Shown: positions 10,270-32,941 of the stretch, piece after piece
Numbering within the stretch: the first letter of the stretch is position 1
How the letters are laid out: every line of letters starts with the position of its first letter
Source of the DNA: Pseudomonadota bacterium
GTDB taxonomy: Bacteria > Pseudomonadota > Gammaproteobacteria > Burkholderiales > Burkholderiaceae_C
NCBI GenBank assembly: GCA_030538605.1
Contig: JAUNTQ010000028.1
Coordinates: 1 to 36,598, forward strand
DNA: 36,598 bases
Direction of reading: 5' to 3'
Notes under the pieces: model-generated
The model's input: only the letters and a program-made list of their open reading frames with translations
Database searches by the model: none
What the model was told of the DNA's origin: nothing
Made by a program: the position numbers and the translations under genes

Positions 10270-10361
10270 AAAAAGTGAGCTTCTTGCGTACGTTATATAG
10301 TATTTTCAGATATATTTGTATCTGAAATAAAGGTAAAACGTACGCAAGAAGCTCACTTTTT
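10270..10361. repeat. AT-rich two-tier palindrome (copy 2 of 6)
   Basis: The outer arms at 10270-10293 and 10338-10361 are a perfect 24-bp inverted repeat (AAAAAGTGAGC, TTCTTGCGTACGT). The inner stem TTTCAGATA (10304-10312) pairs with TATCTGAAA (10319-10327) around a 6-base loop. Terminal A and T runs would give terminator-like hairpins in both directions. The element lies between the ligase and fabI genes, both on the minus strand. It occupies part of the 302-base gap 10250-10551, together with the hairpin at 10400. Confidence 0.9.
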
Positions 10362-10399
10362 TTACATTTTGTTCATCCGTGTCCATAGGCCACTGCCTT

Positions 10400-10506
10400 G
10401 TAGGCTGGGTAGAGCCGAAGGCGAAACCCAGCGTTCTGGCGAGCTGGTTTGCTGGGTTTCGCTTTCACTCTACCCAGCCTACAAAGATGTGTGCATACAC
10501 AAGCCC
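10400..10506. repeat. GC-rich hairpin repeat, GCTGGGTTTCGCC family (copy a)
   Basis: The left arm 10400-10432 (GTAGGCTGGGTAGAGCC, then GAAGGCGAAACCCAGC) pairs imperfectly with 10451-10482. A conserved tail, AAGATGTGTGCAT, then ACACAAGCC, follows to about 10505. Copies lie at 18406-18512 and 30875-30957, with a half-copy at 22592-22622. It lies 38 bases from the AT-rich palindrome. The remaining bases to fabI show nothing further. Confidence 0.85.
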
Positions 10507-10551
10507 CAGCGGGGGAAAGGGCCACAACCAACAGTTGCTTGAAGGCGCGCT

Positions 10552-11355
10552 TTATCCCACCATGTCGGCAGACAGGCCCGCCGTCTGGCTGAAGCCGCCG
10601 TCGACGTAGGTGATTTCGGCGGTGACGCCGGCGGCCAGGTCGCTCAGCAGGAAGGCGGCGACGTTGCCCACGTCGTCGATGGTCACGTTGCGGCGCAGGG
10701 GCGAGGCGCTGGCCACGGTGCCGAGCAGCTTGCCGAAGTCCTTGATGCCGCTGGCCGCCAGCGTCTTGATGGGGCCGGCTGAGATGCCGTTGACGCGCAC
10801 GCCTTTGCCGCCCAGCGCCTCGGCCATGAAGCGCACGCTGGCTTCAAGAGAGGCCTTGGCCAGGCCCATGGTGTTGTAGTTGGGGATGGTGCGCAGCGCG
10901 CCCAGGTAGCTGAGGGTGAGCAGCGCGGCCTTGTCGCTCAGATAGGGCAGGGCGGCCTTGGCCATGCCGGGGAAGCTGTAGGCGCTGATGTCGTGGGCGA
11001 TGCGAAAGTTTTCGCGGCTCAGGCCGTCGAAGAAGTTGCCCGCAATGGCCTCGCGCGGGGCAAAGCCGATGGCATGCACGAAGCCGTCGAAGGTGGGCCA
11101 GGTGGCCGACAAGTCCTTGAACATGGCTTCGATCTGCTCGTCGCTGCCGACGTCGCAGTCGAACACGAGCTGGCTGTCGAACTCGGCGGCGAAGTCGGTG
11201 ATGCGGGCCTTGAAGCGTTCGCCCACGTAGCTGAAGGCCAGCTCGGCGCCTTGCGCGCGGCAGGCGCGGGCGATGCCGTAGGCGATGGAGCGGTTGGACA
11301 AAACGCCGGTGATGAGCAGTTTTTTGCCTGCCAGAAAGCCGTGGGGGTTGCGCAT
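10552..11355 (-). CDS. fabI: Enoyl-[acyl-carrier-protein] reductase (NADH), FabI
   Basis: FabI catalyses the last reduction in each fatty-acid elongation cycle and is the target of triclosan. The 267-aa product has the short-chain dehydrogenase fold, with cofactor-binding [11 protein letters not shown] (residues 17-27) and the FabI catalytic pattern Tyr150, Tyr160 and Lys167 ([11 protein letters not shown]). The ATG at 11355 is preceded on its strand by AAAGGAG. It is divergent from the YejA-like gene, with only 56 bases between the starts, so the two promoters must overlap. Confidence 0.97.
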
Positions 11356-11411
11356 GTTTTGCCTGCTCCTTTGAGATGAAAATCGGCGAAAAAAGTGGTC
11401 AGAATTGTCGC

Positions 11412-13226
11412 ATGCGTGTTTTGCTTTCCCTCTTGCTCACGGCCACGGCATCGACCTGCTGGGCCGCCCACGGCTACGCCCTTTGGGGCGACATGAAGTA
11501 TCCGCCGGGTTTTGCCCATTTCGACTACGTCAACCCCGATGCGCCCAAGGGCGGCGAGCTGCGGCTGGCAAGCAATCTGCGCGTGTCCACCTTCGACAAA
11601 TACAACCCCTTCACCATTCGCGGCAACGCCCCGGCGTACCTGAGCCAGCTCATGTTCGACACGCTGCTGACTGGCTCGCTCGACGAAGAGGGCGCTGCCT
11701 ACGGCCTGCTGGCCGAAGACGTGCAGGTGGCCGAAGACCGGCTTTCGGCCACCTTCACGCTGCGGCGCGAGGCGCGCTTTCACAACGGCGATGCGGTGCT
11801 GGCGCGCGACGTCAAGCACAGCTTCGACACCCTCATCGGCCCGCACGCCGCGCCGGGCTACAAGACGCTGCTGGCCGACGTGGCGGGCGTTGACGTGGTG
11901 GGCGAGCGCACGGTGCGCTTTCGCTTCAGCCAGCCCAACCGCGAACTGCCGCTCACCGTGGGCGGGCTGCCCGTGTTCAGCCACCAGTGGGGCGAGGGCA
12001 AGCCCTTCAACGAGGTGGTGATGGAGCCGCCCATCGGCAGCGGCCCCTACACCATCGGCCCGGTGAAGTTCGGCAAGGACATCACCTATGTGCGCCAGCC
12101 CGACTACTGGGCGCGCGAGCTGAACGTGCGGCGCGGCACGGCCAACTTCGACCGCATCCTGGTCAAAATCTACCGCGACAACACCGCCCGGCTGGAGGCG
12201 CTGAAAGCGGGTGAGTTCGACCTGATGGCGTTTTATTCGGCCGGCGACTGGGCGCGGCGCGTCAATGGCAAGCGCTTTGATTCGGGCGAGCTGGTCAAGG
12301 GCGAGTTCCAGCACAAGCTGCCCACCGGCTTTCAAAGCTACGTGCTCAACAGCCGCCGCCCGCTGCTGGCCGACGCGCGCGTGCGCCAGGCGCTGGGCCT
12401 GGCGATCGACTACGAGTGGATGAACCGGCAGATGTTCTACGGCTCCTACAGCCGCGTGCACGGCCTGTTCGGCAACACCTCGTGCGCGGCCAGCGGCACG
12501 CCCAGCGCGCAAGAGCTGGCGCTGATGGAGCCGTTTCGCCAGCACATTCCACCCGCCGCCTTCGGCCCCGCCCATGTGCCCCCGCGCACCGACCAGCCGC
12601 AGGACGCCACCGTCGGCGGCCTGCGCGAGAACCTGCGCCGCGCGCGCGACCTGCTGGCCCAGGCAGGCTGGCAGATCGACAAGGGCACGCTGCGCAACGC
12701 GCAGGGCCAGCCCTTCGTGCTGGAGTACCTCGACAGCAACGAAACCGGCGCGCGCGTGGTCGCGCCGTGGCTGCGCAACCTGGAGCGCCTGGGCATCACC
12801 CTGCGCTTTCGCCCGGTGGACTTTGCGCTGTACCAGCAGCGGCTGCAAAAGTTCGACTTCGACATCACCAGCCTGGCCTACCAGGGCACGCCCAACCCGG
12901 GGCAGGAATACGCCGACCTGTTCGGCAGCCAGGCCGCCGACACCGAAGACTCGGGCAACCTGGCGGGCGTGAAAAACCCCGCCATCGACGGCCTCATCAG
13001 CCACATGGTGGGTGCCAAGACGCACGCCGACTACCTGGCCGCATGCCGCGCGCTGGAGCGCGTGGTCAGCCACAGCCACTACCTGCTGCCTCAGTGGTTT
13101 GCGCCCACGCACCGGCTGGCCTACAACGCCTGGCGGCTGGCCATGCCCGGGCAGATTCCGCCTTACTTCAGGGGCGAGACCTGGGCCATCGACACCTGGT
13201 GGGCCCGGCCCGCGCCGGTGCGCTGA
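11412..13226 (+). CDS. Periplasmic peptide-binding protein of an ABC transporter, YejA-like
   Basis: A 604-aa family 5 extracellular solute-binding protein. From the ATG at 11412 there is a signal peptide ([18 protein letters not shown]), followed by the YejA-type opening [29 protein letters not shown]. YejA binds peptides, including microcin C in enterobacteria, for uptake by YejBEF. No yejB, yejE or yejF gene is present here, so the partner permease and ATPases must lie elsewhere. The open frame extends 12 codons upstream, but that would disrupt the signal peptide. Oligopeptide import is likely; the exact ligand cannot be told. Confidence 0.87.
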
Positions 13227-13374
13227 GCGCCGGTGTGGCGGCGGCGCGTCGCCATGCAGGCGGCGCGGGCCATGGCGGCGCTGATGCGCAATACTGGCAG
13301 CCGCTTTGCAAGCGCTCCCGGTGTGCCGATGTGGCTGCCGGGCCCTGAGGTCATCACGTTCAGAAAGGTTCACG

Positions 13375-15756
13375 ATGTCGGATCACACCCCGTTTCCCGC
13401 GCGCCGCAAGCCGTGGCTGAGTCTGTGGCTGCTGCTGCCCATGGCGGTCTATCTGCTGGTGGGCGGCGCGTGGCTGATCGGCCTGGGCGGCTCGCCCTAT
13501 TACGCGGTGCTGGGCGCGCTGCTGGCGCTGTGCGCTGCGCTGCTGTGGCGTGGCCGCGCGGCGGCTCTCGGGCTGTATGCCCTGGTGATCTGGGGCACCC
13601 TGGTGTGGGGGCTGTGGGAGTCGGGCACCGACTTCTGGGCACTGGCCCCGCGCTACGGCCTGCTGTTCTTGCTGGGCCTGTGGCTGCTGCTGCCCCGGGG
13701 CACGCGCGCACAGGGCCGCACGCCGGGCACGCGCGCCGCGCTGGGCGCGGGGCTGGCGGCCATGCTGGCGGTGCTGGGCTACAGCATCTTCAACGACCCG
13801 CAGCAGGTGCATGGCGAAATCGCCCGCGCCCAGCCCGCCGAGGCGGCCCCGGTGCCGGGCGTGGCCCCCGAAGACTGGCCGGCCTATGGCCGCACGCAGG
13901 AAGGCGTGCGCTATTCGCCGCTGACGCAGATCAACGCGGACAACGTGAAGGAGCTGAAGCTCGCCTGGACCTACCGCACGGGCGACATGCCCGGGCCCAA
14001 CTCGCCGATCGAGGCCACCAACGAGGTCACGCCCATCAAGGTGGGCGACAAGGTGTTTCTGTGCACCATGCACCAGTTTCTGGACGCGCTGGACGCCAGC
14101 ACCGGCCAGCGGCTGTGGCGCTTTGACCCGCAGCTCAAGGTCAACCCGAGCTACCAGCACCTGACCTGCCGCGGCGTCTCCTACCACGACGTGGCGCAGC
14201 ACCCAGGCGCTGCCGCCGTCAGCACGCAATGCCCGCGCCGCATCATCCAGCCCGTGGGCGATGGGCGGCTGATCGCCGTGAACGCCGACAACGGCACGCG
14301 CTGCACCGACTTTGGCGATAACGGCGAGGTCAATCTGCAGGCGCACATGCCCTACGCCTACCCGGGCGGCTACAACCCCACGTCGCCCGCCGTGGTCACG
14401 CCCACCACCATCGTCATCGGCGGCTCGGTCACCGACAACTACTCGAACGAAGAGCCTTCGGGCGTCATCCGGGGCTACGACGTCATCACCGGTGCGCTGA
14501 AATGGGTGTTCGACACCGGCGCCGAAAACCCCAACGCCATGCCGGGCGAGAACACCACCTTCGTGCACAACTCGCCCAACGCCTGGGCCCCGCTGGCCTA
14601 CGACGCCGCCGCCGACGTGGTGTACGTGCCCACCGGCGTGGGCACGCCCGACATCTGGGGCGGCGACCGCGGGCCGCTGAAAGAGCGCTACGCCAACTCG
14701 GTGCTGGCGCTTCAGGCCGAAAACGGGCATCTGGTGTGGCATTTCCAGACCACGCGCCACGACCTGTGGGACATGGACGTGCCCTCGCAGCCCACGCTGA
14801 CCGAGGTGCGCCAGGCCGATGGGCAGACGGTGCCGGTGGTCTACGTCACCACCAAGACGGGCGAATTCTTCGTGCTTGACCGGCGCGACGGCAAGCCGGT
14901 GGTGCCCGTCACCGACCGGCCCGTGCCGCAGGCCGTCAAGCGCGGGCCGCAAACCAAGGGCGAACACTATGCGCCCACGCAGCCCTTCTCGGATCTCAGC
15001 CTGCGGCCCAAGGAGATGCTGACCGACAAGAACATGTGGGGCGGCACCCTGCTCGACCAGCTCATGTGTCGCATCATGTTCAAGCGGCTGAACTACGAAG
15101 GCGTCTACACGCCGCCCTCGGAAAACGGCACGCTGGTGTTTCCGGGCAACCTGGGCGTGTTCGAGTGGGGCGGCATCTCGGTCAACACCGACCGGCAGGT
15201 GGCGGTGATGAACCCCATCGGCCTGCCGTTCACCTCGCGCCTGATCCCGAAAGACCCCGACCGCCCCCGCACCGAGCGCGGCGCCGGCACCGAAAGCGGC
15301 GTGCAGCCCATGTATGGCGTGCCGTACGGGGTGGAGATCAACGCCTTCCTGTCGCCGCTGGGCCTGCCCTGCAAGGAGCCGGGCTGGGGCTTCATCGCCG
15401 CGGTGGACATGACCACGCACGAAGTGGTGTGGAAAAAGCGCATCGGCACCATCCGCGACAGCCTGCCCAGGCTGATGCAGCTGCCGCCGCTGCCCATCGG
15501 CGTGCCCGGCCTGGGCGGCGCCATCTCCACCGCAGGCGACGTGATGTTCGTCGCCGCCACGCAGGACGACTACCTGCGCGCCTTCCGGGTGAGCAACGGC
15601 GAAAAACTGTGGCAAGCGCGCCTGCCCGCCGGCGGCCAGGCCACGCCCATGACCTACAGCGTGGACGGCAAGCAGTACGTGCTCATCATGGCCGGCGGCC
15701 ACGGCTCCTTCGGCACGCGCATGGGCGACTACCTGATGGCGTATGCGCTGCCGTAG
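13375..15756 (+). CDS. gcd: Membrane-bound PQQ-dependent dehydrogenase, glucose/quinate family
   Basis: This enzyme oxidises a sugar or cyclic polyol at the periplasmic face and passes electrons to ubiquinone. The 793-aa protein begins after AGAAAGG at the ATG 13375. It has about five N-terminal membrane helices (residues 12-125), then an eight-bladed PQQ propeller beginning at WPAYGRTQEGVRYSPL. Family segments such as HDLWDMDVPSQP, RNVLDR-like FFVLDRRDGKPV, and GGHGSFGTRMGDYLMAYALP at the end are visible. The glucose versus quinate/shikimate substrate cannot be settled from sequence alone. No PQQ-synthesis genes are present. The 148-base gap before it shows nothing distinctive. Confidence 0.93.
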   Translation: MSDHTPFPARRKPWLSLWLLLPMAVYLLVGGAWLIGLGGSPYYAVLGALLALCAALLWRGRAAALGLYALVIWGTLVWGLWESGTDFWALAPRYGLLFLLGLWLLLPRGTRAQGRTPGTRAALGAGLAAMLAVLGYSIFNDPQQVHGEIARAQPAEAAPVPGVAPEDWPAYGRTQEGVRYSPLTQINADNVKELKLAWTYRTGDMPGPNSPIEATNEVTPIKVGDKVFLCTMHQFLDALDASTGQRLWRFDPQLKVNPSYQHLTCRGVSYHDVAQHPGAAAVSTQCPRRIIQPVGDGRLIAVNADNGTRCTDFGDNGEVNLQAHMPYAYPGGYNPTSPAVVTPTTIVIGGSVTDNYSNEEPSGVIRGYDVITGALKWVFDTGAENPNAMPGENTTFVHNSPNAWAPLAYDAAADVVYVPTGVGTPDIWGGDRGPLKERYANSVLALQAENGHLVWHFQTTRHDLWDMDVPSQPTLTEVRQADGQTVPVVYVTTKTGEFFVLDRRDGKPVVPVTDRPVPQAVKRGPQTKGEHYAPTQPFSDLSLRPKEMLTDKNMWGGTLLDQLMCRIMFKRLNYEGVYTPPSENGTLVFPGNLGVFEWGGISVNTDRQVAVMNPIGLPFTSRLIPKDPDRPRTERGAGTESGVQPMYGVPYGVEINAFLSPLGLPCKEPGWGFIAAVDMTTHEVVWKKRIGTIRDSLPRLMQLPPLPIGVPGLGGAISTAGDVMFVAATQDDYLRAFRVSNGEKLWQARLPAGGQATPMTYSVDGKQYVLIMAGGHGSFGTRMGDYLMAYALP

Positions 15757-15774
15757 GGGGCGGCCGCTTGCGGT

Positions 15775-15799
15775 CATGTGCGCATAGCATGCGCACATG
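15775..15799. promoter_or_regulatory. Perfect 10-bp inverted repeat spanning the ccdA start codon
   Basis: CATGTGCGCA (15775-15784) and TGCGCACATG (15790-15799) form a perfect inverted repeat around a TAGCA spacer, and the right arm contains the ccdA ATG. It could be the operator bound by CcdA, or an mRNA hairpin that buries the start codon. No separate Shine-Dalgarno sequence is evident. The symmetry is seen directly; the role is inferred. Confidence 0.6.
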
Positions 15800-16042: not shown

Positions 16043-16054
16043 CGGACGCGGGAG

Positions 16055-16385: not shown

Positions 16386-16398
16386 AGGCAGCGCCCCT

Positions 16399-18405: not shown

Positions 18406-18512
18406 GTCGGCTGGGTAGGGCCGAAGGCGAAATCCGGCGTTCTCGCGAGCCGGTTTGCTGGGTTTCGCCTTCGGCTCTACCCAGCCTACGAAGATGTGTG
18501 CATGCACAAGCC
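18406..18512. repeat. GC-rich hairpin repeat, GCTGGGTTTCGCC family (copy b)
   Basis: The left arm 18406-18438 pairs with 18457-18489 (GCTGGGTTTCGCC, TTCGGCTCTACCCAGCC), and the same AAGATGTGTGCAT tail as in copy a follows to 18512. The tail contains the palindrome TGTGCATGCACA. The hairpin starts five bases after the stop of the small membrane protein and may serve as its transcript end. Confidence 0.85.
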
Positions 18513-18549: not shown

Positions 18550-18641
18550 AAAAAAGGAGCTTCTTGCGTACGTTTTTAAACGATTTCAGTATTGAAAGTA
18601 TCTGAAATTGAATATAAACGTGCGCAAGAAGCTCCTTTTTT
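18550..18641. repeat. AT-rich two-tier palindrome (copy 3 of 6)
   Basis: The 26-bp arms at 18550-18575 and 18616-18641 match with one difference, which would be a G-U pair in RNA. The inner stem ATTTCAG (18583-18589) pairs with CTGAAAT (18602-18608). The ends carry runs of six A and six T. It lies between convergent genes, so a two-way terminator role is plausible. It is part of a repeat island with the hairpin at 18406 and the repeat at 18696; these elements fill the gap 18401-18782. Confidence 0.9.
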
Positions 18642-21311: not shown

Positions 21312-21427
21312 AACAGCCGGACGCAGAGGACGCAAAGACTACGCAGAGGACGCAAAAGAACAGCCAAAAAATTGGTATTTCTTTTGCGTCCTCTGCGAAT
21401 CCTTTGCGCTCTCTGCGTCCGGCTGTT
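21312..21427. repeat. Long inverted repeat of CGCAGAGGACGC units overlapping the MBL gene stop
   Basis: The outer arms AACAGCCGGACGC, AGAGGACGCAAAG (21312-21337) and 21402-21427 pair at 24 of 26 bases. The inner arms 21342-21360 (CGCAGAGGACGCAAAAGAA) and 21379-21397 pair perfectly. The right outer arm reaches the stop codon of the MBL-fold gene. The unit GACGCAGAGGACGC repeats within each arm. It would form a strong hairpin between the MBL and hydroxylase genes and could limit read-through. Confidence 0.85.
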
Positions 21428-22486: not shown

Positions 22487-22580
22487 GATAAAAAAGGAGC
22501 TGCTTGCGCATGTATTTAGATATTTTCAGATTGATTTCAATCTGAAAATACTTGTCTACATGCGCAAGCAGCTATCGTTA
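22487..22580. repeat. AT-rich two-tier palindrome (copy 4 of 6)
   Basis: The core arms AGCTGCTTGCGCATGTA (22498-22514) and 22557-22573 are perfect over 17 bp. The inner stem TATTTTCAGATTGA (22521-22534) pairs perfectly over 14 bp with 22537-22550, leaving a two-base loop. GATA and TATC flank it. It lies between fruA and the MBL gene, both on the minus strand. The rest of the 249-base gap holds the operator at 22451 and the half-hairpin at 22592. Confidence 0.9.
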
Positions 22581-22591
22581 TCGGCTTGCTT

Positions 22592-22644: not shown

Positions 22645-24393
22645 TCAGCCTGCGGCCGTCACCGGTTTTTTCAGCACGCCCAACAGCACCACGCTCAGCA
22701 GCGTGCCAGCGGCAATGGCCACGAGGTACATGCCCAGGTGGGTGACGGCGTTGGGGATGGGCAGCACGAACGCGCCGCCGTGGGGCACGCGCAGTAGGCA
22801 GCCCGCGGCCATGCTGATGGCACCGGTCAGGGCCGAGCCTGCGGCCAGCGCGGGGATGACGCGCAGCGGGTCTTTGGCGGCAAAGGGGATGGCCCCTTCG
22901 GTGATGAAGGCCAGGCCCATCACGCCCGCGGCCTTGGCGCCGTCGCGCTCTTCGCGGGTGAAGCGGTTTTTGAACACCCAGGCCGCCACGGCAATGGCCA
23001 GTGGCGGGGTCATGCCGCCTGCCATGACGGCGGCCATGGGCGCATAGACTTCGCTGGCGATCAGGCCCGTGCCGAAGGTGTAGGCCGCCTTGTTGACAGG
23101 CCCGCCCATGTCGATGGCCATCATGCCGCCCAGCAGCAGGCCGAGCACCAGCGCGCTGCCGGTCTGCATGCCCTTGAGCCATTCGGTGAGCGCGGCCAGC
23201 GCGGCGGCCACGGGCTGGCCGACGACGTAGTACATCAGCAAGCCCACGATGGCGGTGGACAACAGCGGCAGGATGAGCACGGGTTTGAGCCCGTCGAGGT
23301 TGCGGCCAAGCTGAATCTTTTCGTTCAGCCACCGGGCGCTGTAGCCGGCGATGAAGCCCGCCACCAGCCCGCCCAGAAAGCCCGCGCCGATGGCGTGGGC
23401 CACCACGCCGCCTGCCATGCCGGGGGTGATGCCGGGGCGGTCGGCAATCGAGTAGGCGATGTAGCCCGCCAGCACCGGAATCATGAGCGAGAACGCCTGC
23501 TGCCCGATGGTGAACAGCGTCCAGCCGAGCGTGCCTTTGTTGGCCTCTTCATAGACGTAGATGCCGCCCAGCGCAAAGCCCAGCGCGATCAGCAGCCCAC
23601 CGGTGACGACAAAAGGCAGCATGAAGGACACGCCGGTCATCAGGTGCTTGTAGATGCCGGTGCGCTCTGGCTTGGGTGCTGCGGCGCTGGCGGCGGCGGT
23701 GGGTGCGCCATGCACGGTGGCCTCGGCCTGCGCCTGGGCAATGAGGGCTTGGCCGTTTTTGATGGCGGCTTTGGTGCCGCCCGAGAACAGGCGCTTGCCT
23801 GCAAAGCGGCTGGTGTCTACCTGCGTGTCGGCGGCGATGATGACCAGGTCTGCCGCCGCAATGTCGGCAGGCGTGAGGGCGTTTTGCGCGCCGACGGAGC
23901 CTTGCGTTTCAACCTTGATCGTGTGGCCCAGCGCGGCGGCGGCGCTTTTCAGCCCCTCTTCGGCCATGAAGGTGTGGGCAATGCCGGTGGGGCAGGAGGT
24001 GATGGCGACGATGCGCAGCGGGGCACCAGTGGTATTTGCTGAAGATGCGGCGTTTGCGCTTTTTTGGTCTGCGCTGGCAGCTATTGAATTTTTATCGTAA
24101 AACGCCAGCACGGTGGCGGCGTCGTGCAGCACGTCGGCCAGCGTGGCGCGCTGCACGGCCTTGCCTGCCAGGCGCATGTCGTGGGTGGCTTCGTCTGCCG
24201 CGCCGACCAGCAGCACCTGCGTGGCGGCGGCGATGTCGGCATCGGTCAGCGGCTCTGTCACGCCGCTCGTGGCGTGGGTTTCCACGCGCAGCGGCAGCCC
24301 GCGCGCCTCGGCGGCTTGGCGCAGGGCTTCGCGCGCGAGCAGGCCGTGGGTGTCGCGCGTGGCGGCGTGCACAACGACTACCAGGGGGTGCAT
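22645..24393 (-). CDS. fruA: Fructose PTS permease, EIIB'BC (FruA)
   Basis: The membrane permease imports fructose and phosphorylates it to fructose 1-phosphate. From the ATG at 24393 (preceded by AGGAG) the product is 582 aa. Residues 1-95 are an EIIB-like domain lacking the active Cys (HAATRDTHG). A linker follows (about 100-124), then the active EIIB domain with Cys134 ([17 protein letters not shown]), then the EIIC membrane domain from about 245, with [12 protein letters not shown] and [10 protein letters not shown]. The linker contains a low-complexity AT-rich segment that resembles half of the intergenic palindrome (24070-24096). It is third in the fruB-fruK-fruA operon, 20 bases after fruK. 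Confidence 0.96.
24070..24096 (-). repeat. Half-copy of the AT-rich palindrome inside the FruA linker
   Basis: Read on the coding strand this is GATAAAAATTCAATAGCTGC followed by CAGCGCA. It resembles the left arm of copy 4 (GATAAAAAAGGAGCTGC, TTGCGCA). It is in frame and encodes DKNSIAASA in the linker between the two EIIB domains. The match is by eye and short. Confidence 0.4.
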
Positions 24394-25397: not shown

Positions 25398-25424
25398 GGC
25401 GTGCCTCGCAGGCAGTGGGTGGGT

Positions 25425-27977
25425 TCAGCGCTTGACTTGCGCGGGCGCGTCGAGCCGCGCGGCCAGGGCGCGCACGCTGTCGGCGGTGTCGCTGGCTGTG
25501 GCCAGCGCGGCCAGCTCGGTGAGCAAGGCGGTGTCACATCCGCGCAGCGCGGCCTTGACGGGGGCAATGTCGCGCTGGCTCATCGACAGCTCGCGCACGC
25601 CCAGGCCGGTGAGGATGGCTGCGCCCAGCGGGTCGCCCGCGATGCCGCCGCACACGCCTACCCAGCAGCCGTGGCCGCGTGCCTGGGCGGCCTGCGCGCC
25701 TTGCACGGTGCGCTGGATCATGCGCAGCACGGCGGGGTGCAGGCTGTCGGCTTCGCGGGCCAGCTCGGGGTGCTGGCGGTCGACGGCCAGCACGTATTGC
25801 GTGAGGTCGTTGGTGCCGATGGAGAAAAAGTCCACCTGCATGGCGAGTTGATCGGCCATGACGGCGGCGGCAGGCACTTCCACCATGATGCCGATGGGCA
25901 CCACGGGTGCGCCGAGCTGCTGGCGGATGCGCTCGCAGTCGCTGCGCAGCGCGGTCACTTCGGCCAGGCTGGTGATCATGGGGAACATGATGGACAGCGC
26001 AGCGGCGGCGGTGCCGGTGCCTGCCTCTTTCGCGGCGCGGTAGATGGCGCGCAGTTGCGGCTCCAGCAAGTCGGGGCGGCGCAGCATGAGGCGGCTGCCG
26101 CGTATGCCGAGAAAGGGGTTTTCCTCGTGTGGCAGGTGCAGGTAGGGCACCTGCTTGTCGCCACCAATGTCGAGCGTGCGGATGATGAGCGGCTTGCCGC
26201 CCAGTGCCTGCACCATGTCCCGGTAGATGGCGTATTGCTCGTCCTCGGTGGGGGCGCTGTCGCGCTCCAGGTAGAGGAATTCGGTGCGCATCAGCCCCAC
26301 GCCTTCGGCCCCGGCAGCCAGCGCAGCGGGCACTTGCTCGGGGCGGTTGACGTTGGCCGCCACTTCCACGCGCACGCCGTCGCGGGTGGTGGCGGGCTGC
26401 AAGGCGCGCTCGGCGTTGGCGCGGGTTTGCGCCTGCTGGCGCTCGCGCCACTGGCGGGCGCTGGCCAGATCGGCTTCGTCCAGTTGCCAGTACAGCCGCG
26501 CGCCGTCGCCGTCCACCACCACGGGCGTGCCGTCTGGCAAGTCGAGCAGCGCGCTGCCTGCGGCCACCAGCGCGGGCAGGCCCAGCGTGCGGGCGATGAT
26601 GGCCGTGTGCGACGAGGGGCCGCCCTGCGCCGTGCACAGCGCGGCCACGCGGCGCACGTCAAGCGCGGCGGTGTCGCTGGGGGTGAGGTCGGTTGCGGCG
26701 ATGACGAGGTGCTCGCCGTCTTGCGGCGCGTCCTCGTGCCGCGCCAGCTCGGGGGCCAGCTTGCCCAGCACGCGCTGGCCCACGTCGCGCAAGTCGGCGG
26801 CACGGGCGGCCAGCACGGGGTTGCCCAGCGCGGCCAGTTGCGTGGCCACGTGTTCGATGGCGTGGTGCCAGCTATGGGCCACGCCGTGGCCTTGCACCAT
26901 GCGCTGGCAGGCGTGGGTGAGCAGGTCGGTGTCGCCCAGCAGCTCTGCCTGCGCGCGAAAGATGCCGCCTTCAGCCGCGCCAATGCGGCGGGCGGTGTCA
27001 CCGGCCAGTTGCAGCAGCTCGGCGCGGGTGTCGGTCAGGGCGGCATCGAGCAGGTCTGCGCCCTCATGCAGCGCAATGGGCACATCGGGCACTTGCAGCG
27101 CGGCGGCGCGGCGCACGCACAGCGTGCCCACGGCCAGGCCCGGGCTGGCGCTGATGGCTTGCAGCGACAGCGACTTGCCCGCGGGCTGCCAGGCGGCGCG
27201 CGGCGCGGTGGCTTGCTGCTGCCGGGCCTTGTCGGCCTCGGCCTGCTCGGCGTTTGTCAGGCGCTCCATCACGCCTTTGAGCGCGACCAGCGCGGCGGCA
27301 GCGTCGGAGCCTTCGGCAGACACGCGCACCGTCTGGCCGTGGGCTATGCCCAGTTGCAGCAGGGCGATGAGGTTCTTGCCATCGCCCACCTCGCTGCCGC
27401 TGCGCACGCGCACGCTGGCGGCAAAGCGGCGCGCGGCCTCTACCCATTGCTGGGCAGGGCGCGCGTGCAGGCCGTTGGGGTAGGGCATCGTCCAGTCGAA
27501 GCCCTGCGCGTAATCGGCTTGCGGCGCGGCGGGCGCGGCGGCGGGGGCTTGCTCGAGCGCGGCGAGGATGTCGCCTGCGTCTTGCGTGGTGGCCAGACGC
27601 TGCAAGGTGGCTTCGTCTTGCAGCAGGCGCGTGAGCCGCCGCAGCAGCGAAAGGTGTTCGTCAGACTGTGCGGCAATGGCGAAGATGAGGTGCGCTGTCT
27701 GCCCCGCGTTCCAGGCCACGCCGCCGGGCACTTGCAGCACGGCAATGCCGGTCTTGCGGATCATGTGGCGGTCGGCAATGACCCCGTGCGGAATGGCCAC
27801 GCCGTGGCCCAAAAACGTGTTGGCCGCCTGCTCGCGCGCCAGCAGGCTGTCGATGTAGGCCGGGGCAATGTGTCCCGCATCGGCCAGCAGTTGCCCCGCC
27901 TGGCGAATGGCGGCAACCTTGTCGGCAGGGGCAGCGCCCAGTTGAATCAGCTCACGGCTGACCAGTGGATTGGACAT
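25425..27977 (-). CDS. fruB: Fructose PTS EIIA-HPr-EI fusion protein (FruB/multiphosphoryl transfer protein)
   Basis: This 850-aa protein carries the whole soluble phosphorelay from phosphoenolpyruvate to FruA. The domains in order are EIIA(Fru) with His64 (VAIPHG), HPr with His171 (PNGLHARPAQ), and Enzyme I with His457 (GGPSSHTAIIARTLGLPALV) and a C-terminal PEP-binding barrel with the GVCGGIAGDP segment. An Ala/Pro/Gln linker (about 143-158) separates EIIA and HPr. The HPr regulatory Ser position reads GKNLIALLQLG, with Asn, so HPr-kinase control is not expected. AGAGGAG precedes the ATG. It heads the fruB-fruK-fruA operon, and no fruR-like regulator is in the window. Confidence 0.96.
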   Translation of the reverse strand: MSNPLVSRELIQLGAAPADKVAAIRQAGQLLADAGHIAPAYIDSLLAREQAANTFLGHGVAIPHGVIADRHMIRKTGIAVLQVPGGVAWNAGQTAHLIFAIAAQSDEHLSLLRRLTRLLQDEATLQRLATTQDAGDILAALEQAPAAAPAAPQADYAQGFDWTMPYPNGLHARPAQQWVEAARRFAASVRVRSGSEVGDGKNLIALLQLGIAHGQTVRVSAEGSDAAAALVALKGVMERLTNAEQAEADKARQQQATAPRAAWQPAGKSLSLQAISASPGLAVGTLCVRRAAALQVPDVPIALHEGADLLDAALTDTRAELLQLAGDTARRIGAAEGGIFRAQAELLGDTDLLTHACQRMVQGHGVAHSWHHAIEHVATQLAALGNPVLAARAADLRDVGQRVLGKLAPELARHEDAPQDGEHLVIAATDLTPSDTAALDVRRVAALCTAQGGPSSHTAIIARTLGLPALVAAGSALLDLPDGTPVVVDGDGARLYWQLDEADLASARQWRERQQAQTRANAERALQPATTRDGVRVEVAANVNRPEQVPAALAAGAEGVGLMRTEFLYLERDSAPTEDEQYAIYRDMVQALGGKPLIIRTLDIGGDKQVPYLHLPHEENPFLGIRGSRLMLRRPDLLEPQLRAIYRAAKEAGTGTAAAALSIMFPMITSLAEVTALRSDCERIRQQLGAPVVPIGIMVEVPAAAVMADQLAMQVDFFSIGTNDLTQYVLAVDRQHPELAREADSLHPAVLRMIQRTVQGAQAAQARGHGCWVGVCGGIAGDPLGAAILTGLGVRELSMSQRDIAPVKAALRGCDTALLTELAALATASDTADSVRALAARLDAPAQVKR

Positions 27978-28049
27978 GGTGCAGTCTCCTCTGAAAGCAC
28001 AGTCTATCCGCAGCGCTGGCTTGCAGACAGCGTGTACGATGCTGCAGGG

Positions 28050-28148
28050 TAATAAAAAATAATAGCTATTTGCATAGGTTATAAATCAACTTCAATAATA
28101 TTTATATTGAAAATAATGTATATGCTGCGCAAATAGCTATCAAAATAA
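28050..28148. repeat. AT-rich two-tier palindrome (copy 5 of 6, divergent)
   Basis: Core arms ATAGCTATTTGC (28062-28073) and GCAAATAGCTAT (28129-28140) are perfect over 12 bp, with looser AT-rich extensions. The inner stem TTCAATA (28091-28097) pairs with TATTGAA (28105-28111). It lies in the 306-base divergent gap between fruB and the MFS gene, so it cannot end either transcript in the usual way. The rest of this gap shows no clear promoter. Confidence 0.8.
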
Positions 28149-28283
28149 TTTCAACCAGCACACCCCGCTGGCCCATGACGCCCGGTCTTGCTGCCTTCGC
28201 TCCGGGCGAAGGCAGGCCACCGTCGCGGCTGTCAGGGCTGCCCGTCGGTGCACGCACGCGCGCAGTGCGTACCATCTGTTCTC

Positions 28284-29486
28284 ATGTCTTCTGATGCTCC
28301 CGTCCCCGTGCCACTGCGCGACGACGCCAAGGTGATCGGCCTGGTGGGTCTGGCCCATGCCAGCTCGCACTTTGCGCACCTGCTGCTGCCGCCGCTGTTT
28401 CCCATTTTCATGAGCGAGTTCGGCGTGGGCTTTGCCCAGCTGGGTTTCCTGATGACGGTGTTTTTCATCGTCTCGGGCACGGGGCAGGCGTCGGCCGGTT
28501 TTCTGGTCGATCGGGTGGGCGCGCGACCGGTGATGGTGGCCTCGTTCGTGTGCTTTATCGCCGCGTGCCTGGCGGGCTACTGGGCACAGAGCTACGCGGG
28601 GCTGATGCTGGTGGCCGTGCTGGCGGGGCTGGGCAATGCGCCGTTTCACCCGGTGGACTTTTCCATTCTCAACCAGCGCGTGTCGCCCGCGCGCCTGGGC
28701 TACGCTTTCAGCGCGCATGGCCTCAGCGGCAACCTGGGCTGGGCGCTGACGCCGGTGTTTTTGCTGTTTTTCACCGCCTGGCAGGGCTGGCGCTCGGGCT
28801 ATCTGGCGGCGGCGGTGATGTATGCGCTCATCCTTGCCGTGCTGCTGGCAGGGCGCGCGCACCTGAAAACCGAGGTCGTGTGCCGCGCGCCCGATGCGCC
28901 GCGGGGCAGCGACGTGGCGTTTCTGAAGCTGTCCGTGGTGTGGTGGTGTTTTGCGTTCTTTCTGCTCTCCACCATGACGCTGGCCGTGGTGCAGGGCTTT
29001 GCCCCCTCCATCATGAAAGCCATGCACGGCGTGAGCTTCGAGGCGGCCACGGCCGTCATCACCGCCTACATGCTCTGCGGCGCGGCAGGTATGTTCGTGG
29101 GCGGCCTCGTGGCCGCGCGCATGCCGGCGGCCAGCGACCGCGTGGTGGCCTGGGCCATGGGCGCAGGCGCGGTGCTGATCGTGGCCGCCGCCACTGGCTG
29201 GCTGGGCGGCTTCGGCTCGATGGCGGTGCTGGCCGCCAGTGGCTTTGCCATTGGCATTGGCGGCCCCAGCCGCGACATGATGATCAAGAAAGCCGCCCCC
29301 CAGGGTGCCACGGGCCGCGTGTACGGCACCGTGTATTCGGGCCTGGATATCGGCTTTGCCCTTGCGCCGCTGATTTATGGCGCGTTCATGGACCGGGGCT
29401 GGTACGCCACCACGCTGGCGCTGGCGGCGGTGTTCCTCACGCTGTCGGTGGTGGCCGCGCTGGGCGTGGGGCGGCGCACGGCATGA
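28284..29486 (+). CDS. MFS transporter, 12 membrane helices
   Basis: A 400-aa major facilitator protein with about 12 hydrophobic helices. The N-terminus MSSDAPVPVPLRDDAKVIGLVGLAHASSHFAHLLLPPLFP and the GFLVDRVGARPVM loop match MFS motif A. The helix-1 HxxxH pattern resembles the Fsr-like efflux branch. The ATG at 28284 is chosen because the upstream frame has no helix and overlaps the repeat region; no clear Shine-Dalgarno sequence is present. The amidohydrolase gene begins 34 bases downstream, so the pair may be co-transcribed. The substrate is unknown. Confidence 0.87.
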   Translation: MSSDAPVPVPLRDDAKVIGLVGLAHASSHFAHLLLPPLFPIFMSEFGVGFAQLGFLMTVFFIVSGTGQASAGFLVDRVGARPVMVASFVCFIAACLAGYWAQSYAGLMLVAVLAGLGNAPFHPVDFSILNQRVSPARLGYAFSAHGLSGNLGWALTPVFLLFFTAWQGWRSGYLAAAVMYALILAVLLAGRAHLKTEVVCRAPDAPRGSDVAFLKLSVVWWCFAFFLLSTMTLAVVQGFAPSIMKAMHGVSFEAATAVITAYMLCGAAGMFVGGLVAARMPAASDRVVAWAMGAGAVLIVAAATGWLGGFGSMAVLAASGFAIGIGGPSRDMMIKKAAPQGATGRVYGTVYSGLDIGFALAPLIYGAFMDRGWYATTLALAAVFLTLSVVAALGVGRRTA

Positions 29487-29520
29487 TCGCCCGCGCCCTT
29501 TGCTGATTTTTTTTTGCGCC

Positions 29521-30768
29521 ATGCACCTGACCCTGTTCAAGAACGTCCACGTCGTCGATGTGCGCAGCGGTCAGCTGCTGGAAGACCACCACGTGCTGGT
29601 CGAGGGCGAGGCGATCCGCGAAGTCTCCGAGCAGCCCATCACCTCAAACGCCGCCCGCACCATAGACGGCGCGGGCCGCACGCTGATGCCGGGGCTGATC
29701 GATTGCCACGTACACGTCACCGCCTCGCACATCAACTTCGGGCTGCTGGCGCAGACGCCCCACACCCTGCTGGCCTATCGCGCGCTGCCCATCTTGCGCG
29801 GCATGCTGCGGCGCGGCTTCACCACGGTGCGCGATGCGGGCGGGGCCGACTGGGCCTTGAAGCAGGCGCTGGAAGACGGTGTGGACGGCACCGTGATGGG
29901 CCCGCGCCTGTTCGTCAGCGGCTCGCCGCTCAGCCCCACGGGCGGGCATGGCGACTTTCGGCCCCGCTCGGGCCGCTTGCAGCCGGTGGGTTGCAGCTGC
30001 CACCAGCTGGCGGGCACGCGCGTGGTCGATGGCGTGGACGCCGTGCGCCAGGCGGTGCGCGAGCAGATGCAGATGGGGGCCGACCAGATCAAGATCATGT
30101 CCAGCGGCGGCGTGGCATCGCCCACCGACCCGGTGAACGCACTGGGCTACTCGCTGGACGAGACGCGCGCCATCGTCGATGAGGCCGCTGCGCGCCACAC
30201 CTACGTGCTGGCGCACGCCTACACGCCCGAGGCCATTCGCCGCGCGGTGGCATGTGGCGTGCGCAGCATCGAACACGGCAACCTGATCGACGCACCCACC
30301 GCCGCGCTGATGGCCGAGCGCAGCGCGTTTGCCGTGCCCACGCTCGTCACCTATGAAGCGCTGGCCGAGGACGGTGCGCGCCTGGGCCTGCCGCGCGAGA
30401 GCGTGGCCAAGATCGAGCAGGTGCGCGAGGCGGGCCTGCGGTCGCTGGAAATCTTCAAGGCCGCCGGCGTGAAGATGGCGCTGGGCACCGACCTGCTGGG
30501 CGAATCGCACACGCGGCAAAGCGACGAGCTGCGCATCCGCGCACAGGTGCTGTCCAAGCTGGAAGTGCTGCAAAGCGCCACGCTGGTGGGCGCCGAGCTG
30601 CTGGGCCAACAAGGCGTGCTGGGTGAAGTCACGCCCGGCGCGCGCGCCGACTTGCTGCTGGTGGATGGCAACCCGCTGCATGACCTGGCCTGCCTGGCTG
30701 GCCAGGGCGAGCGCCTGGCGCTGGTGATGCAGGGCGGGCAGGTGCGGGTGAACGCGCTGGGCGCATGA
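29521..30768 (+). CDS. Metal-dependent amidohydrolase (imidazolonepropionase/prolidase-like)
   Basis: A 415-aa amidohydrolase-superfamily enzyme of the COG1228 type. All metal-site residues are visible: His63 and His65 (DCHVHV), the carboxylated Lys191 (QIKIMSSGG), His232 (LAHAYTPEA), His252 (SIEHGN) and Asp324 (LGTDLLG). This is a binuclear site. Relatives hydrolyse dipeptides such as Xaa-Pro/Xaa-Arg or cyclic amides. The ATG at 29521 follows a T-rich stretch; the longer frame overlaps the MFS gene. The upstream transporter could import its substrate or export its product. Confidence 0.9.
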   Translation: MHLTLFKNVHVVDVRSGQLLEDHHVLVEGEAIREVSEQPITSNAARTIDGAGRTLMPGLIDCHVHVTASHINFGLLAQTPHTLLAYRALPILRGMLRRGFTTVRDAGGADWALKQALEDGVDGTVMGPRLFVSGSPLSPTGGHGDFRPRSGRLQPVGCSCHQLAGTRVVDGVDAVRQAVREQMQMGADQIKIMSSGGVASPTDPVNALGYSLDETRAIVDEAAARHTYVLAHAYTPEAIRRAVACGVRSIEHGNLIDAPTAALMAERSAFAVPTLVTYEALAEDGARLGLPRESVAKIEQVREAGLRSLEIFKAAGVKMALGTDLLGESHTRQSDELRIRAQVLSKLEVLQSATLVGAELLGQQGVLGEVTPGARADLLLVDGNPLHDLACLAGQGERLALVMQGGQVRVNALGA

Positions 30769-30771
30769 AAA

Positions 30772-30799
30772 AAACCCCGTTGCCGAGGCGACGGGGTTT
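30772..30799. terminator. Bidirectional intrinsic terminator
   Basis: AAACCCCGT (30772-30780) pairs with ACGGGGTTT (30791-30799). A run of seven A to the left gives a T-tail for minus-strand transcripts, so it best serves the binding-protein gene at 31169. The + strand has only a short T-run, which also follows the amidohydrolase stop. Confidence 0.75.
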
Positions 30800-30874
30800 C
30801 AAGAAGCAAACAAGCCACGACGCTTGCCTGGAAAACGCAAGGCCATCGCATTGAAGATGCCCTGCGACATCCTT

Positions 30875-30957
30875 GTAGGCTGGGTAGAGCGAAGCGAAAC
30901 CCAGCAAACCGGCCTCGCAAAAACGCTGGGTTTCGCCTTCGGCTCTACCCAGCCTAC
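30875..30957. repeat. GC-rich hairpin repeat, GCTGGGTTTCGCC family (copy c)
   Basis: The left arm GTAGGCTGGGTAGAGC, GAAGCGAAACCCAGC (30875-30905) pairs with 30925-30957. The loop differs from copies a and b, and the AAGATGTGTGCAT tail is missing. It lies in the 400-base gap 30769-31168 between convergent genes. Confidence 0.85.
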
Positions 30958-30975
30958 GAGGCTGCAAATCGGAAG

Positions 30976-31042
30976 GCCGCGGAGCAGGCCATTCCAAGGC
31001 CGCCCGAGCCGGGGTTTCCCGGGCGAGCAGCGGCGTCCCCCT
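30976..31042. repeat. Intergenic direct repeat, CCGCCCGAGCCGGGGTTTCC family (copy 2)
   Basis: The partner of 18696-18764. It is followed to 31168 by GC-rich sequence with small inverted units (GAAGGGG/CCCCTTC, GAGCCGTCGCC/GGCGACGAGC) in which I see no gene. Confidence 0.8.
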
Positions 31043-31168
31043 TCCCGAAGAGAGAAGGGGCTGAGGCCCGTGGCTCCAAGCCTGCTTGCGCAGGTTTGGA
31101 CGGGCCGAAGAGCCGTCGCCTCTGGCGACGAGCGCGGTGGCGAGCGTCAGCGCCTCAGGGGGATGCTC

Positions 31169-32755
31169 TTATTTCACGGTCGTCCACTGCGGCATGGGCC
31201 GGTCGTCGGCGCGGTGCACGGTGGTCACGTTCTTGCGCATGGCCCAGGGGCGGATCTGGTCGTGCAGGGGCAGGTAGTTGTAGTCGTCTTTCACGGTTTG
31301 CAGCACTTCGTGAATCATGGCGTTGCGCTTGGCTTCGTCCATCTCGACCTTGATCTGCTGAACCAGCGCGTCGATCTTCGGGTTGCTCATGCGGCCGTTG
31401 TTGAAGTTGCCGGCCGCGCCGCCCTTGCCGTCCACCGTGCTGATGAGCGAGTCGATCGAGTACAGCGCGTCGAACGTGGCCACGCCCCAGCCCAGCATGT
31501 AGGCGCTGACTTCGTAGCGCTGGATCTTGCCGACGTGAATGGCCATCGGGTTGGTGAGCAGCCGCGTCTTGACGCCGATGCGCGACCACATGGCGGTGAC
31601 GGCCTGGCAGATCTGCTCGTCGTTGACGTAGCGGTCGTTGGGGCAGTCCAGCGTCAGCTCGAAGCCCTGCGGGTAGCCCGCGTCGGCCAGCAGCTTTTTG
31701 GCGCCTTCCACGTCGAACTTGGCGGCGCGCTGGCCCAGCTCTTTCGTCCAGCCGTTGACCATGGGGGCGATCATGGTGCCGGTGGGTGTGCCCAGCCCGC
31801 GCATCACGTTGCGCTCGATGGCGGCCATGTCTACCGCCTGGTAGAGCGCCTGGCGCACGCGCTTGTCTTTCAGCGGGTTCTTGCCCTTGACGTTGCTGCC
31901 CAGCAGCTCGTCGCGGTGCTGGTCGAAGCCGAGGAACATGGTGCGGTTTTCGGGCGCTTCGATCACGCGGATGTTGGCGTCGCGCTTGATGCGCTCCAGG
32001 TCTTGCACGGGTGGATCCACCACGAAGTCGACCTGGCCCGTGAGGAGCGCGGCCGAGCGCGTGGCAGCTGATTTGATGGGGGTGAACACCACCTCTTCGA
32101 CGTTGCCCCTGGGCTTGTCCCACCAGTCGGGGTTTTTCTTGAGCGTGGTGCGGGTGTCGGGCTGCCAGGACACGAGCATGAAGGGGCCGGTGCCGTTGGC
32201 GTTGCGCGAGGCGAAGTTCTCTTCCTTGGCCTTGAAGTCCTGTGCCTTGGTGGCGTTGTTTTTCTCGGCCCAGGCCTTGTTCATGATGCGCGCCTCGACC
32301 AGCTCGCGCAGCACCACGGGGCTGGGGCCTTTGAGGATGACGTCGACGGTGTGCTCGTCCACCTTCTTGACCTCTTGCACGCTTTGCGTGGCCGAGGTGA
32401 GGTTGGACGGCGGCGTCATGGTGCGGGCGAGGGAGAAGACCACGTCGTCGGCGGTGAAGGGTGCGCCGTCGTGGAATTTGACGCCCTTGCGCAATTCGAA
32501 GCGCAGCTGCGTGGGGCTGATGAAAGTCCACTTGGTGGCCAGCGCGGGCTCGATCTGGAACTTGTCGTTGTAGCGGATCAGCGGCTCGTACACCATCTGC
32601 TGATAGGCCAGCGTGGTCTGGTGGTTCTGGCCAGCGGGGTCGAAGGTGAGGATGTCGTTGGCACCGGCAATGCGCAGCGTGGCCGCGTGCGACGCGCCTG
32701 CCAGCGCGAACGCGGCCAGCGCCACGGCGCCAAGGGCAAAGGTGGGACGGAACAT
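31169..32755 (-). CDS. Periplasmic solute-binding protein of a peptide ABC transporter (family 5)
   Basis: A 528-aa DppA/OppA-type binding protein. From the ATG at 32755 the signal peptide is MFRPTFALGAVALAAFALAGASHA, followed by ATLRIAGANDILTFDPAGQNHQTT. Family segments are visible: LRFELRKGVKFHDGAPFTADDVVFSL near 95-120, and DKRVRQALYQAVDMAAI. Dipeptides, oligopeptides or other substrates such as opines are possible. No permease or ATPase gene is adjacent, so partners must be elsewhere. It is divergent from the ThDP enzyme, with a palindrome in between, and ends at a terminator after 400 bases. Confidence 0.9.
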   Translation of the reverse strand: MFRPTFALGAVALAAFALAGASHAATLRIAGANDILTFDPAGQNHQTTLAYQQMVYEPLIRYNDKFQIEPALATKWTFISPTQLRFELRKGVKFHDGAPFTADDVVFSLARTMTPPSNLTSATQSVQEVKKVDEHTVDVILKGPSPVVLRELVEARIMNKAWAEKNNATKAQDFKAKEENFASRNANGTGPFMLVSWQPDTRTTLKKNPDWWDKPRGNVEEVVFTPIKSAATRSAALLTGQVDFVVDPPVQDLERIKRDANIRVIEAPENRTMFLGFDQHRDELLGSNVKGKNPLKDKRVRQALYQAVDMAAIERNVMRGLGTPTGTMIAPMVNGWTKELGQRAAKFDVEGAKKLLADAGYPQGFELTLDCPNDRYVNDEQICQAVTAMWSRIGVKTRLLTNPMAIHVGKIQRYEVSAYMLGWGVATFDALYSIDSLISTVDGKGGAAGNFNNGRMSNPKIDALVQQIKVEMDEAKRNAMIHEVLQTVKDDYNYLPLHDQIRPWAMRKNVTTVHRADDRPMPQWTTVK

Positions 32756-32845
32756 GGGTAAGGCCTTTTCAGTCAAGTGTGAGGAAGGACAATGTTACAA
32801 GTGCGTGACCACCCGTGCGCATGGCATGTGGCCATTCGCCTGAAA

Positions 32846-32941
32846 ATAAAAAGTGAGCTTCTTGCGTACGTTTTAAATTGATTTCAGATGGTTTTATATC
32901 TGAAACTGTTTCATAAATTACGCAAGCAGCTCACTTTTTAT
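32846..32941. repeat. AT-rich two-tier palindrome (copy 6 of 6)
   Basis: The 23-bp arms at 32846-32868 (ATAAAAAGTGAGC, TTCTTGCGTA) and 32919-32941 match at 22 positions. The inner stem TTTCAGAT (32882-32889) pairs with ATCTGAAA (32898-32905). It lies in a divergent 244-base gap, so it must sit inside or beside the promoter region of one or both genes. The arms closely match copy 2 at 10270. Confidence 0.9.

What the first reader, a model, noticed from the sequence alone, without database searches (positions are those of the whole stretch)
10270..32941. Six copies of an AT-rich two-tier palindrome between genes
Copies at 1581, 10270, 18550, 22487, 28050 and 32846 share one design: outer arms built on GCTGCTTGCG or GCTTCTTGCG, and, in five of six, an inner stem TTTCAGAT/ATCTGAAA or a variant of it. 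The total is about 92-100 bp (one is 72). Arms differ between copies, but the two arms of each copy match each other, so base pairing is maintained. They stand out as AT-rich islands in a GC-rich genome. Two lie in divergent gaps, so a pure terminator role does not explain all of them. They may be non-autonomous mobile elements, nucleoid or protein binding sites, or structured RNAs.
Basis: partly seen in the sequence, partly recalled or inferred. Interest (0 to 1): 0.7.

Follow-up and report, generated by a model that had tools for sequence, protein, structure and literature searches.

The report
Dispersed 92-bp palindromes with exclusion zones
The six palindromes belong to a large family of tiny repeated DNA elements scattered mostly near gene ends in one family of bacteria; they are probably small mobile elements, and in this genome two of them are rarely found within about two to three thousand bases of each other.

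Summary
The window holds four full 92-bp palindromes, one divergent copy (28056) and one lacking its centre (1592). The genome (Ottowia-like Comamonadaceae by nearest protein hits) has 291 places matching the arm pattern, against 0 for the reversed control. Listed copies are nearly all 91-92 bp. The family model hits 31 of 250 genomes, own included, in 19 of 126 genera; among 276 class genomes only the own and one of the same family. A 56-bp short form shares the outer stem. Nine open-access literature searches found no description.

The 82 sampled copies lie between genes: 27 of 88 convergent gaps, 9 of 83 divergent, 46 of 532 codirectional. Copies exclude each other: 3 pairs under 3 kb against about 20 expected; GTAG repeats do not. 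No target-site duplication is evident. Nothing favours the transcribed strand. Best reading: a new family of MITE/SPRITE-like mobile palindromes kept as DNA. Mobility is inferred, terminator activity untested, and the cause of the exclusion open.

The parts
1592..1637 (.). short copy: outer arms only, inner part missing (about 46 bp), 36 nt after the stop of a degP/htrA-type gene
10270..10361 (.). full 92-bp palindrome
   Evidence: 93.8 bits
18550..18641 (.). full 92-bp palindrome in a convergent gap
   Evidence: (84.2 bits)
22490..22581 (.). full 92-bp palindrome between a fructose PTS gene, fruA type (stop side), and a metallo-beta-lactamase-superfamily gene (start side)
   Evidence: (81 bits)
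28056..28146 (.). divergent 91-bp copy with outer arms AGCTATTTGCA / GCGCAAATAGCT, in a divergent gap
   Evidence: (42.3 bits)
32848..32939 (.). full 92-bp palindrome in a divergent gap
   Evidence: (81.9 bits)
24035..24090 (-). match to the short (56-bp) form inside the open fruA reading frame, ahead of the IIB domain; not tested against chance
   Evidence: (41.8 bits)

Best explanation
The 92-bp palindrome (L-form) and a 56-bp polar relative (S-form) are two forms of one family of small, non-coding, dispersed DNA elements confined, as far as tested, to one bacterial family (Comamonadaceae by named hits). They most likely spread as mobile, non-autonomous hairpin DNA moved by an enzyme not identified here. 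They settle, or survive, mainly beside gene 3' ends, where their A-tract/GC-stem/T-tract shape resembles a bidirectional intrinsic terminator and is tolerated or used as one. The palindrome is kept as DNA (cruciform, single-strand hairpin or symmetric binding site), not as a sense-strand RNA. In this genome a new copy does not land, or is not kept, within about 2-3 kb of an existing one, which looks like local target immunity or purging of close pairs. Shown here: copy number, architecture, distribution in the genomes searched, gene context, strand neutrality, no evident target-site duplication, local exclusion. Inferred: mobility, the mover, terminator activity, the cause of the exclusion.
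For: 291 pattern matches, 0 control. Listed matches nearly all 91-92 bp in 31 of 250 genomes, 19 of 126 genera, patchy (own included). In the same genus 13 of 29 genomes, own included, give a hit with the own-genome model. One copy on a Comamonas fluminis plasmid, the only one of 72,556 plasmid records with a match to one query copy. No solitary arms beyond degenerate or short-form partners in 183 kb. The S-form model aligns to some L-forms with about 40 extra bases, e.g. L200:4491-4587 (32.3 bits). 11 of 28 S-form matches lie inside called genes (not tested against chance, 4 of the 11 were seeds of the model). No L and S in one gap (0, 2.5 expected, P 0.06). Exclusion: 0 pairs under 2 kb and 3 under 3 kb against 20-21 expected in three nulls; GTAG repeats 4 under 2 kb against 2.3. 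Strand neutrality. A GC-stem with A/T-tracts on both sides; 45 of 64 codirectional copies nearer the stop, median 27 against 85.5 nt.
Against: No target-site duplication evident and no clean empty site. No mover found: of two Y1 transposase genes one has an element within the fetched stretch, about 1 in 3 by chance by my estimate. Some sites are shared between species (G003 has a 92-bp copy after the same gene as own C153:36887), so part of the set may be old and vertically kept. I know of no such exclusion for MITE-like repeats (recalled). Two close pairs exist elsewhere in this genome, about 1.36 kb (L021) and 1.14 kb (L030) apart. In two other genomes the exclusion is weak or partial, on capped lists and a simpler null: G003 0 against 2.1 under 2 kb, P 0.12; G166 1 against 2.2 under 2 kb, P 0.34, and 1 against 6.9 under 5 kb, P 0.004. 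The regular spacing of the first sample was not repeated in the second.
Confidence: 0.5

Rival explanations
1. Bidirectional intrinsic terminators under selection: the elements are the host's own 3'-end hairpins, kept because they stop transcription from both sides.
For: Position just after stops and in convergent gaps; A-tract and T-tract on both sides of a GC-rich stem base; at C153:86143 4 of the 4 relatives examined have an ordinary bidirectional terminator in that gap; one element per gap (0 gaps with two against 5.5 expected in the first sample); predicted hairpin energies of -37.5 to -52.5 kcal/mol for the four full window copies, both strands.
Against: T-tract no better on the read-through side (29 against 30 pairs; 21 against 22). 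No G.U excess and no sense-strand energy advantage. Ordinary terminators, by a crude finder, are not depleted in gaps with an element (convergent 5 of 15 against 6 of 22; codirectional 3 of 23 against 18 of 148). 9 of 82 lie in divergent gaps. Does not explain the 2-3 kb exclusion.
Confidence: 0.25
2. Chromosomal sites for a DNA-binding or topology protein (nucleoid, gyrase-type or insulator sites) that need a minimum spacing.
For: Sequence boxes AGCTGCTTGCG and TTTCAG strongly conserved, with independent variation at box positions 13 and 14, as for half-sites; nearly fixed 92-bp length; local exclusion of about 2-3 kb with mean spacing 8.9 kb.
Against: Beyond 3 kb the positions do not differ clearly from random, so no long-range regularity is shown. 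219 of 250 genomes of the family, and 16 of 29 of the genus with the own-genome model, give no hit (strict filters, so absence is not firm). A 36-kb stretch without a copy exists.
Confidence: 0.15
3. Structured RNA element (processing site, sRNA or stability hairpin).
For: Strong predicted hairpins on both strands; paired columns covary beyond chance.
Against: No Rfam match to the element at gathering score in the window or in 20 further loci; below threshold only generic hairpin families, mostly microRNAs; no sense-strand preference.
Confidence: 0.06

Closest known systems
SPRITE of Streptococcus pneumoniae (PMC3049150, passages read)
   Same: AT-rich, terminator-like, AAAA/TTTT ends, over-represented between convergent genes, close to 3' ends of genes, no target-site duplication established, some MITE features
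   Different: 30 copies and an 18-bp duplex in a Firmicute; here 291 or more copies, a 92-bp two-tier palindrome, a second short form and an exclusion zone; sequences not compared by tool
ERIC and other bacterial MITEs (PMC10969869, passages read)
   Same: intergenic, palindromic, high copy (ERIC 30 to 711 per genome), some at 3' ends of genes
   Different: ERIC is reported from Enterobacteriaceae and Vibrionaceae; its length of about 127 bp and its TA duplication are recalled; no duplication evident here; sequences not compared by tool
BRE, beta-proteobacterial repeat element (PMC3110155, passages and one section read)
   Same: about 90 bp, dispersed, Comamonadaceae among the hosts
GTAG/CGTC-tagged REPs with RAYTs (PMC3733652, start of abstract in a listing and a term search)
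   Same: palindromic, intergenic; GTAG-type repeats occur in the same genome
   Different: no GTAG or CGTC tag at the ends; 92 bp against 20-40 bp
Inverted DNA-uptake-sequence terminators (recalled)
   Same: inverted pairs of a short word near gene ends
   Different: no solitary words in 183 kb apart from degenerate or short forms

Membership tests
MITE | terminal inverted repeats and small non-coding body | tested here: met
   92-bp near-perfect palindrome
MITE | target-site duplication | tested here: not met
   72 own and 28 relative copies, 3,600 combinations of boundaries and lengths 2-10: best own excess 7 against 2.1 (3-mers), not convincing for that many trials; local alignment of flanks no excess, direct or inverted
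MITE | autonomous transposon with the same ends | not tested
   only Y1_Tnp genes were sought
REP/RAYT | GTAG or CGTC tag beside a 20-40 bp hairpin | tested here: not met
   ends are A/T-tracts in alignments A1 and A2
REP/RAYT | RAYT gene flanked by copies | tested here: inconclusive
   of two Y1_Tnp loci L189 has one element at 2033-2124, L190 none at E 0.01
Intrinsic terminator | GC-rich stem base followed by T-tract | tested here: met
   6.64 and 6.75 T in 12 nt at the two ends of 64 codirectional copies
Intrinsic terminator | better T-tract or fold on the transcribed strand | tested here: not met
   29 against 30, and 31 against 33, of 64
Intrinsic terminator | stops transcription | not testable with these tools
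   needs a reporter assay or RNA 3'-end data
BRE (Bordetella repeat) | GC 63.7-78.9%, tandem, also in ORFs | tested here: not met
   GC 22-40% in long own copies, one per gap; BRE description; sequences not compared
DNA uptake sequence | single copies spread over genes | tested here: not met
   183 kb
Rfam RNA family | score above gathering threshold | tested here: not met
   0 for the window; only tRNA and TPP riboswitch hits in 20 further loci

The most novel reading that the evidence does not exclude
A non-coding mobile palindrome family that shows a sharp exclusion zone of about 2-3 kb around each copy, i.e. target immunity or a minimum-spacing rule for elements that carry no gene, set by a protein bound to the AGCTGCTTGCG and TTTCAG boxes and acting on nearby DNA.
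Probability: 0.25. Interest if true: 0.8.

Novelty: new variant of a known kind. Interest (0 to 1): 0.55.

Why it matters
It would add a very abundant repeat family to a bacterial family for which none of this shape was found in print in the searches run (open-access papers only). Its two forms, nearly fixed length and sequence boxes make it easy to trace. The exclusion zone is, to my knowledge, unusual for short dispersed repeats and can be tested directly: it asks whether gene-less elements are subject to target immunity, or whether the chromosome needs these sites spaced. It also offers a natural case where a mobile-looking hairpin stands in a gap that holds an ordinary terminator in relatives.

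Tried and rejected
Uptake-sequence idea: rejected, no solitary arms in 183 kb. Target-site duplications or insertion into older palindromes: no convincing signal, direct or inverted. GTAG-repeat association: 10 of 43 gaps with an element against 5 of 214 without at first, but not beyond expectation once gap class and length were weighted (15 against 12.3, P 0.16). Regular 8-kb spacing: striking in the first sample (CV 0.44, 0/5000), not repeated in the second (CV 0.76, P 0.21), both together CV 0.64, 7/5000; the pair count shows that only the short-range exclusion is clear. Conserved slots: relatives carry an S- or L-form (E below 0.001) in 16 of 40 gap fragments beside genes that flank a 92-bp copy here, but also in 5 of 20 control fragments, and 13 of the 16 were seeds of the S model, so no slot conservation is claimed beyond single aligned cases. 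Rearrangement breakpoints: 4 of 7 elements in two 20-kb stretches fall at breaks of gene order against G003 (judged by eye), too few and confounded with operon ends. BRE and Rfam: rejected. An integron attC resemblance was considered from memory only.

Rows dropped and limits: 3 of 40 first copies of other length left model R1. 4 of 72 own and 6 of 28 relative copies not of core length 76 left the column test. 97 of 100 copies entered the first gene-context test (L157 and two without a called gene on each side left out). The second one used 110 own copies, without the two short ones. The short hit L197:2170-2220 was not counted in set 2, although two similar short hits were counted in set 1. 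28 S-form matches (E below 0.001) were used (a little weaker), of which 19 fell in gaps. Copies were assigned to gaps with a tolerance of 45 nt. Gene calls come from a home-made codon-usage caller, not a standard program. The genome surveys scored only 15-71 candidates a genome with strict filters, so absences and copy numbers there are not firm.
Full report
What is there. A covariance model built from 37 copies in the same genome (alignment A1; model R1) finds four full 92-bp copies in the window at 10270-10361, 18550-18641, 22490-22581 and 32848-32939 (81-93.8 bits), a divergent one at 28056-28146 (42.3 bits) and a short one at 1592-1637 (22.1 bits). The consensus reads AAAAAGTG-AGCTGCTTGCG-spacer-TTTCAGAT-loop-ATCTGAAA-spacer-CGCAAGCAGCT-CACTTTTT. 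The long window copies are 22-35% GC; the first five contigs sampled are 66-68% GC.

How many. A pattern for the outer arms finds 291 places in the 3.77-Mb genome and none with the reversed pattern. Contiguous samples of 412 kb and 375 kb hold 47 and 35 counted copies, so about 390 in all by extrapolation. The nearest named relatives of one window protein are a MAG (85% identity) and Ottowia sp. GY511 (78%), so the host is an Ottowia-like member of the Comamonadaceae (inference).

Relatives. In the same genus 13 of 29 genomes, own included, give a hit with R1, and 2 of 7 other genomes of the family in that search do. A wider model (R2; A2) hits 31 of 250 genomes of the family, own included, in 19 of 126 genera (17 candidates scored per genome, so copy numbers are not comparable). 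Of 276 genomes of the class, 2 have hits: the own genome and G166 of the same family. 24 genomes of 24 other families of the order gave none with R1. Listed matches are nearly all 91-92 bp long (a few 90 or 93). G003 (same genus) and G166 (another genus) have 79 and 82 distinct copies in lists limited to 150 scored candidates. One copy lies on a Comamonas fluminis plasmid, the one record of 72,556 with a match to one query copy. One query copy had no match in the phage collection. None of the 80 named relatives' loci kept round the gene at 33000 has a full copy; one has a weak short match.

Two forms. Relatives and this genome also carry a 56-bp polar form, majority sequence ATAGCTGCC.GCGCTTG...GG.AAGCGCTG..GGCC.ATTT (A3). 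A model of it (R3) also aligns to some 92-bp copies with about 40 extra bases, e.g. L200:4491-4587 and L148:6802-6898 (30-32 bits). I read the 92-bp form as the short stem plus an inserted inner hairpin, or the reverse. Of 28 short-form matches examined 11 lie inside called genes, among them fruA of this window; these were not tested against chance. Of the 47 long or short copies of the first sample none lies inside a called gene; some overlap a gene end by up to 10 nt and one by 40 nt of a weakly scored call. The 35 of the second sample were all assigned to gaps with a tolerance of 45 nt.

Pairing. Pairing exceeds shuffled partners. The coupling is in the spacers, at the ends and weakly in the inner box, not in the outer box: spacer 732 matches against 650 expected of 1020; ends 376 against 337 of 544; inner box 440 against 417 of 544; outer box 698 against 697 of 748. 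Box columns 13 and 14 vary independently in the two arms. Related copies can inflate such counts; the slid control argues against this as the sole cause. In 64 codirectional copies G.U and A.C are about equal on the sense strand (107 and 99, P 0.63), sense and antisense folds are equally stable (31 against 33), and T-tracts are equal (29 against 30). Selection on a sense-strand RNA is therefore not visible; the palindrome behaves as a DNA feature.

Place. In 787 kb the 82 copies occupy 27 of 88 convergent, 46 of 532 codirectional and 9 of 83 divergent gaps. In codirectional gaps 45 of 64 lie nearer to the upstream stop (median 27 nt) than to the next start (85.5 nt) (P 0.0016). No gap has two (0 against 5.5 expected in the first sample). 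This fits terminators, and it also fits insertions weeded out of promoters, as was argued for SPRITE and other repeats (PMC3049150, passages).

Exclusion. In the first sample the spacing was regular (CV 0.44, nulls 0.84-0.88; 0/5000). The second sample did not repeat this (CV 0.76, P 0.21), but no interval was under 2 kb in either (second sample 0 against 4.1, P 0.007; together 0 against 11.3). A pair count shows 0 pairs under 2 kb and 3 at 2-3 kb against 20-21 expected under three nulls, and no clear departure beyond 3 kb apart from a slight excess at 8-10 kb. GTAG repeats in the same DNA show no exclusion (4 under 2 kb against 2.3). In 38 stretches of 2-4 kb taken round a copy, 2 held another copy (L021, L030); seven of those stretches overlap the first sample, and no expectation was computed for them. 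In G166 there is 1 interval under 5 kb against 6.9 (P 0.004) but no significant lack under 2 kb (1 against 2.2); in G003 the trend is not significant (0 under 2 kb against 2.1, P 0.12).

Sites in relatives. No target-site duplication is evident. At C153:86143 the four relatives examined share an ordinary bidirectional terminator in the gap where this genome has the element. After the gene that ends at C153:26813 (VWA-type by my own reading) three relatives begin with a similar stretch of about 20 bases but continue as shorter forms, and G003 has a 92-bp copy after the same gene as C153:36887. A control set tempers this: 16 of 40 test fragments and 5 of 20 control fragments of relatives hold some form of the family, and 13 of the 16 were seeds of the model used.

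Literature. Nothing matching was found in nine searches of open-access papers. The ~90-bp BRE of Bordetella is GC-rich, tandem and partly in ORFs (PMC3110155, section read), so I take it for a different thing; the sequences were not compared. SPRITE is the best analogue in behaviour. In term searches the stem-loop survey PMC2267715 names Bordetella but no Comamonadaceae, and the RepRanger paper PMC12306157 and the GTAG/CGTC paper PMC3733652 name none of the hosts asked for.

Judgement. A new family of small dispersed palindromes, of the kind of MITEs and SPRITEs, with an unusual local exclusion. Mobility is inferred; terminator activity is plausible and untested; the exclusion is the part worth following.

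Noticed in passing
window 24035-24090 (- strand): A match to the short form lies inside the open fruA frame, ahead of the IIB domain (protein reads ...[19 protein letters not shown]...), reminiscent of palindromic elements in Rickettsia proteins (recalled). Whether relatives lack the stretch was not tested.
   Followed up: partly
window 10391-10491, 18406-18489, 30868-30964: Paired GTAG-type repeats, some close to the palindromes; in the sampled genome they share gaps with them no more than expected.
   Followed up: yes
window 34787-34864 and 21312-21427: Two other inverted repeats: a perfect 28-bp arm CCGTCATTCCCGCGAAGGCGGGAATCCA with 22 nt between the arms, and a 56-nt arm built of CGCAGAGGACGCAAA words.
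   Followed up: no
window 29500-32755: Several relatives, e.g. G003 and G023, keep the genes at 28308-29486 and 33000-34697 side by side and the genes of this segment elsewhere, so the segment looks moved in here, next to the palindrome at 32848.
   Followed up: no
L194-L196 (G000 C122 66700-103000): A 36-kb stretch without any copy, with lower GC (0.634) and weak codon-usage score (97 against 162 per kb for the contig): probably a foreign island. Two other long element-free stretches do not look foreign by GC.
   Followed up: partly
L148 1278, 6807, 16887 and L151 16817: Four of seven copies in these two stretches fall at breaks of gene order against G003 (by eye).
   Followed up: partly
L148 4596-5620: A palindrome plus one gene sit between two genes that are close neighbours in three relatives, as if element and gene had come together.
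   Followed up: partly
L189 2033-2124: A copy lies near one of the two Y1-transposase genes of the genome; about a one in three chance event by my estimate.
   Followed up: no
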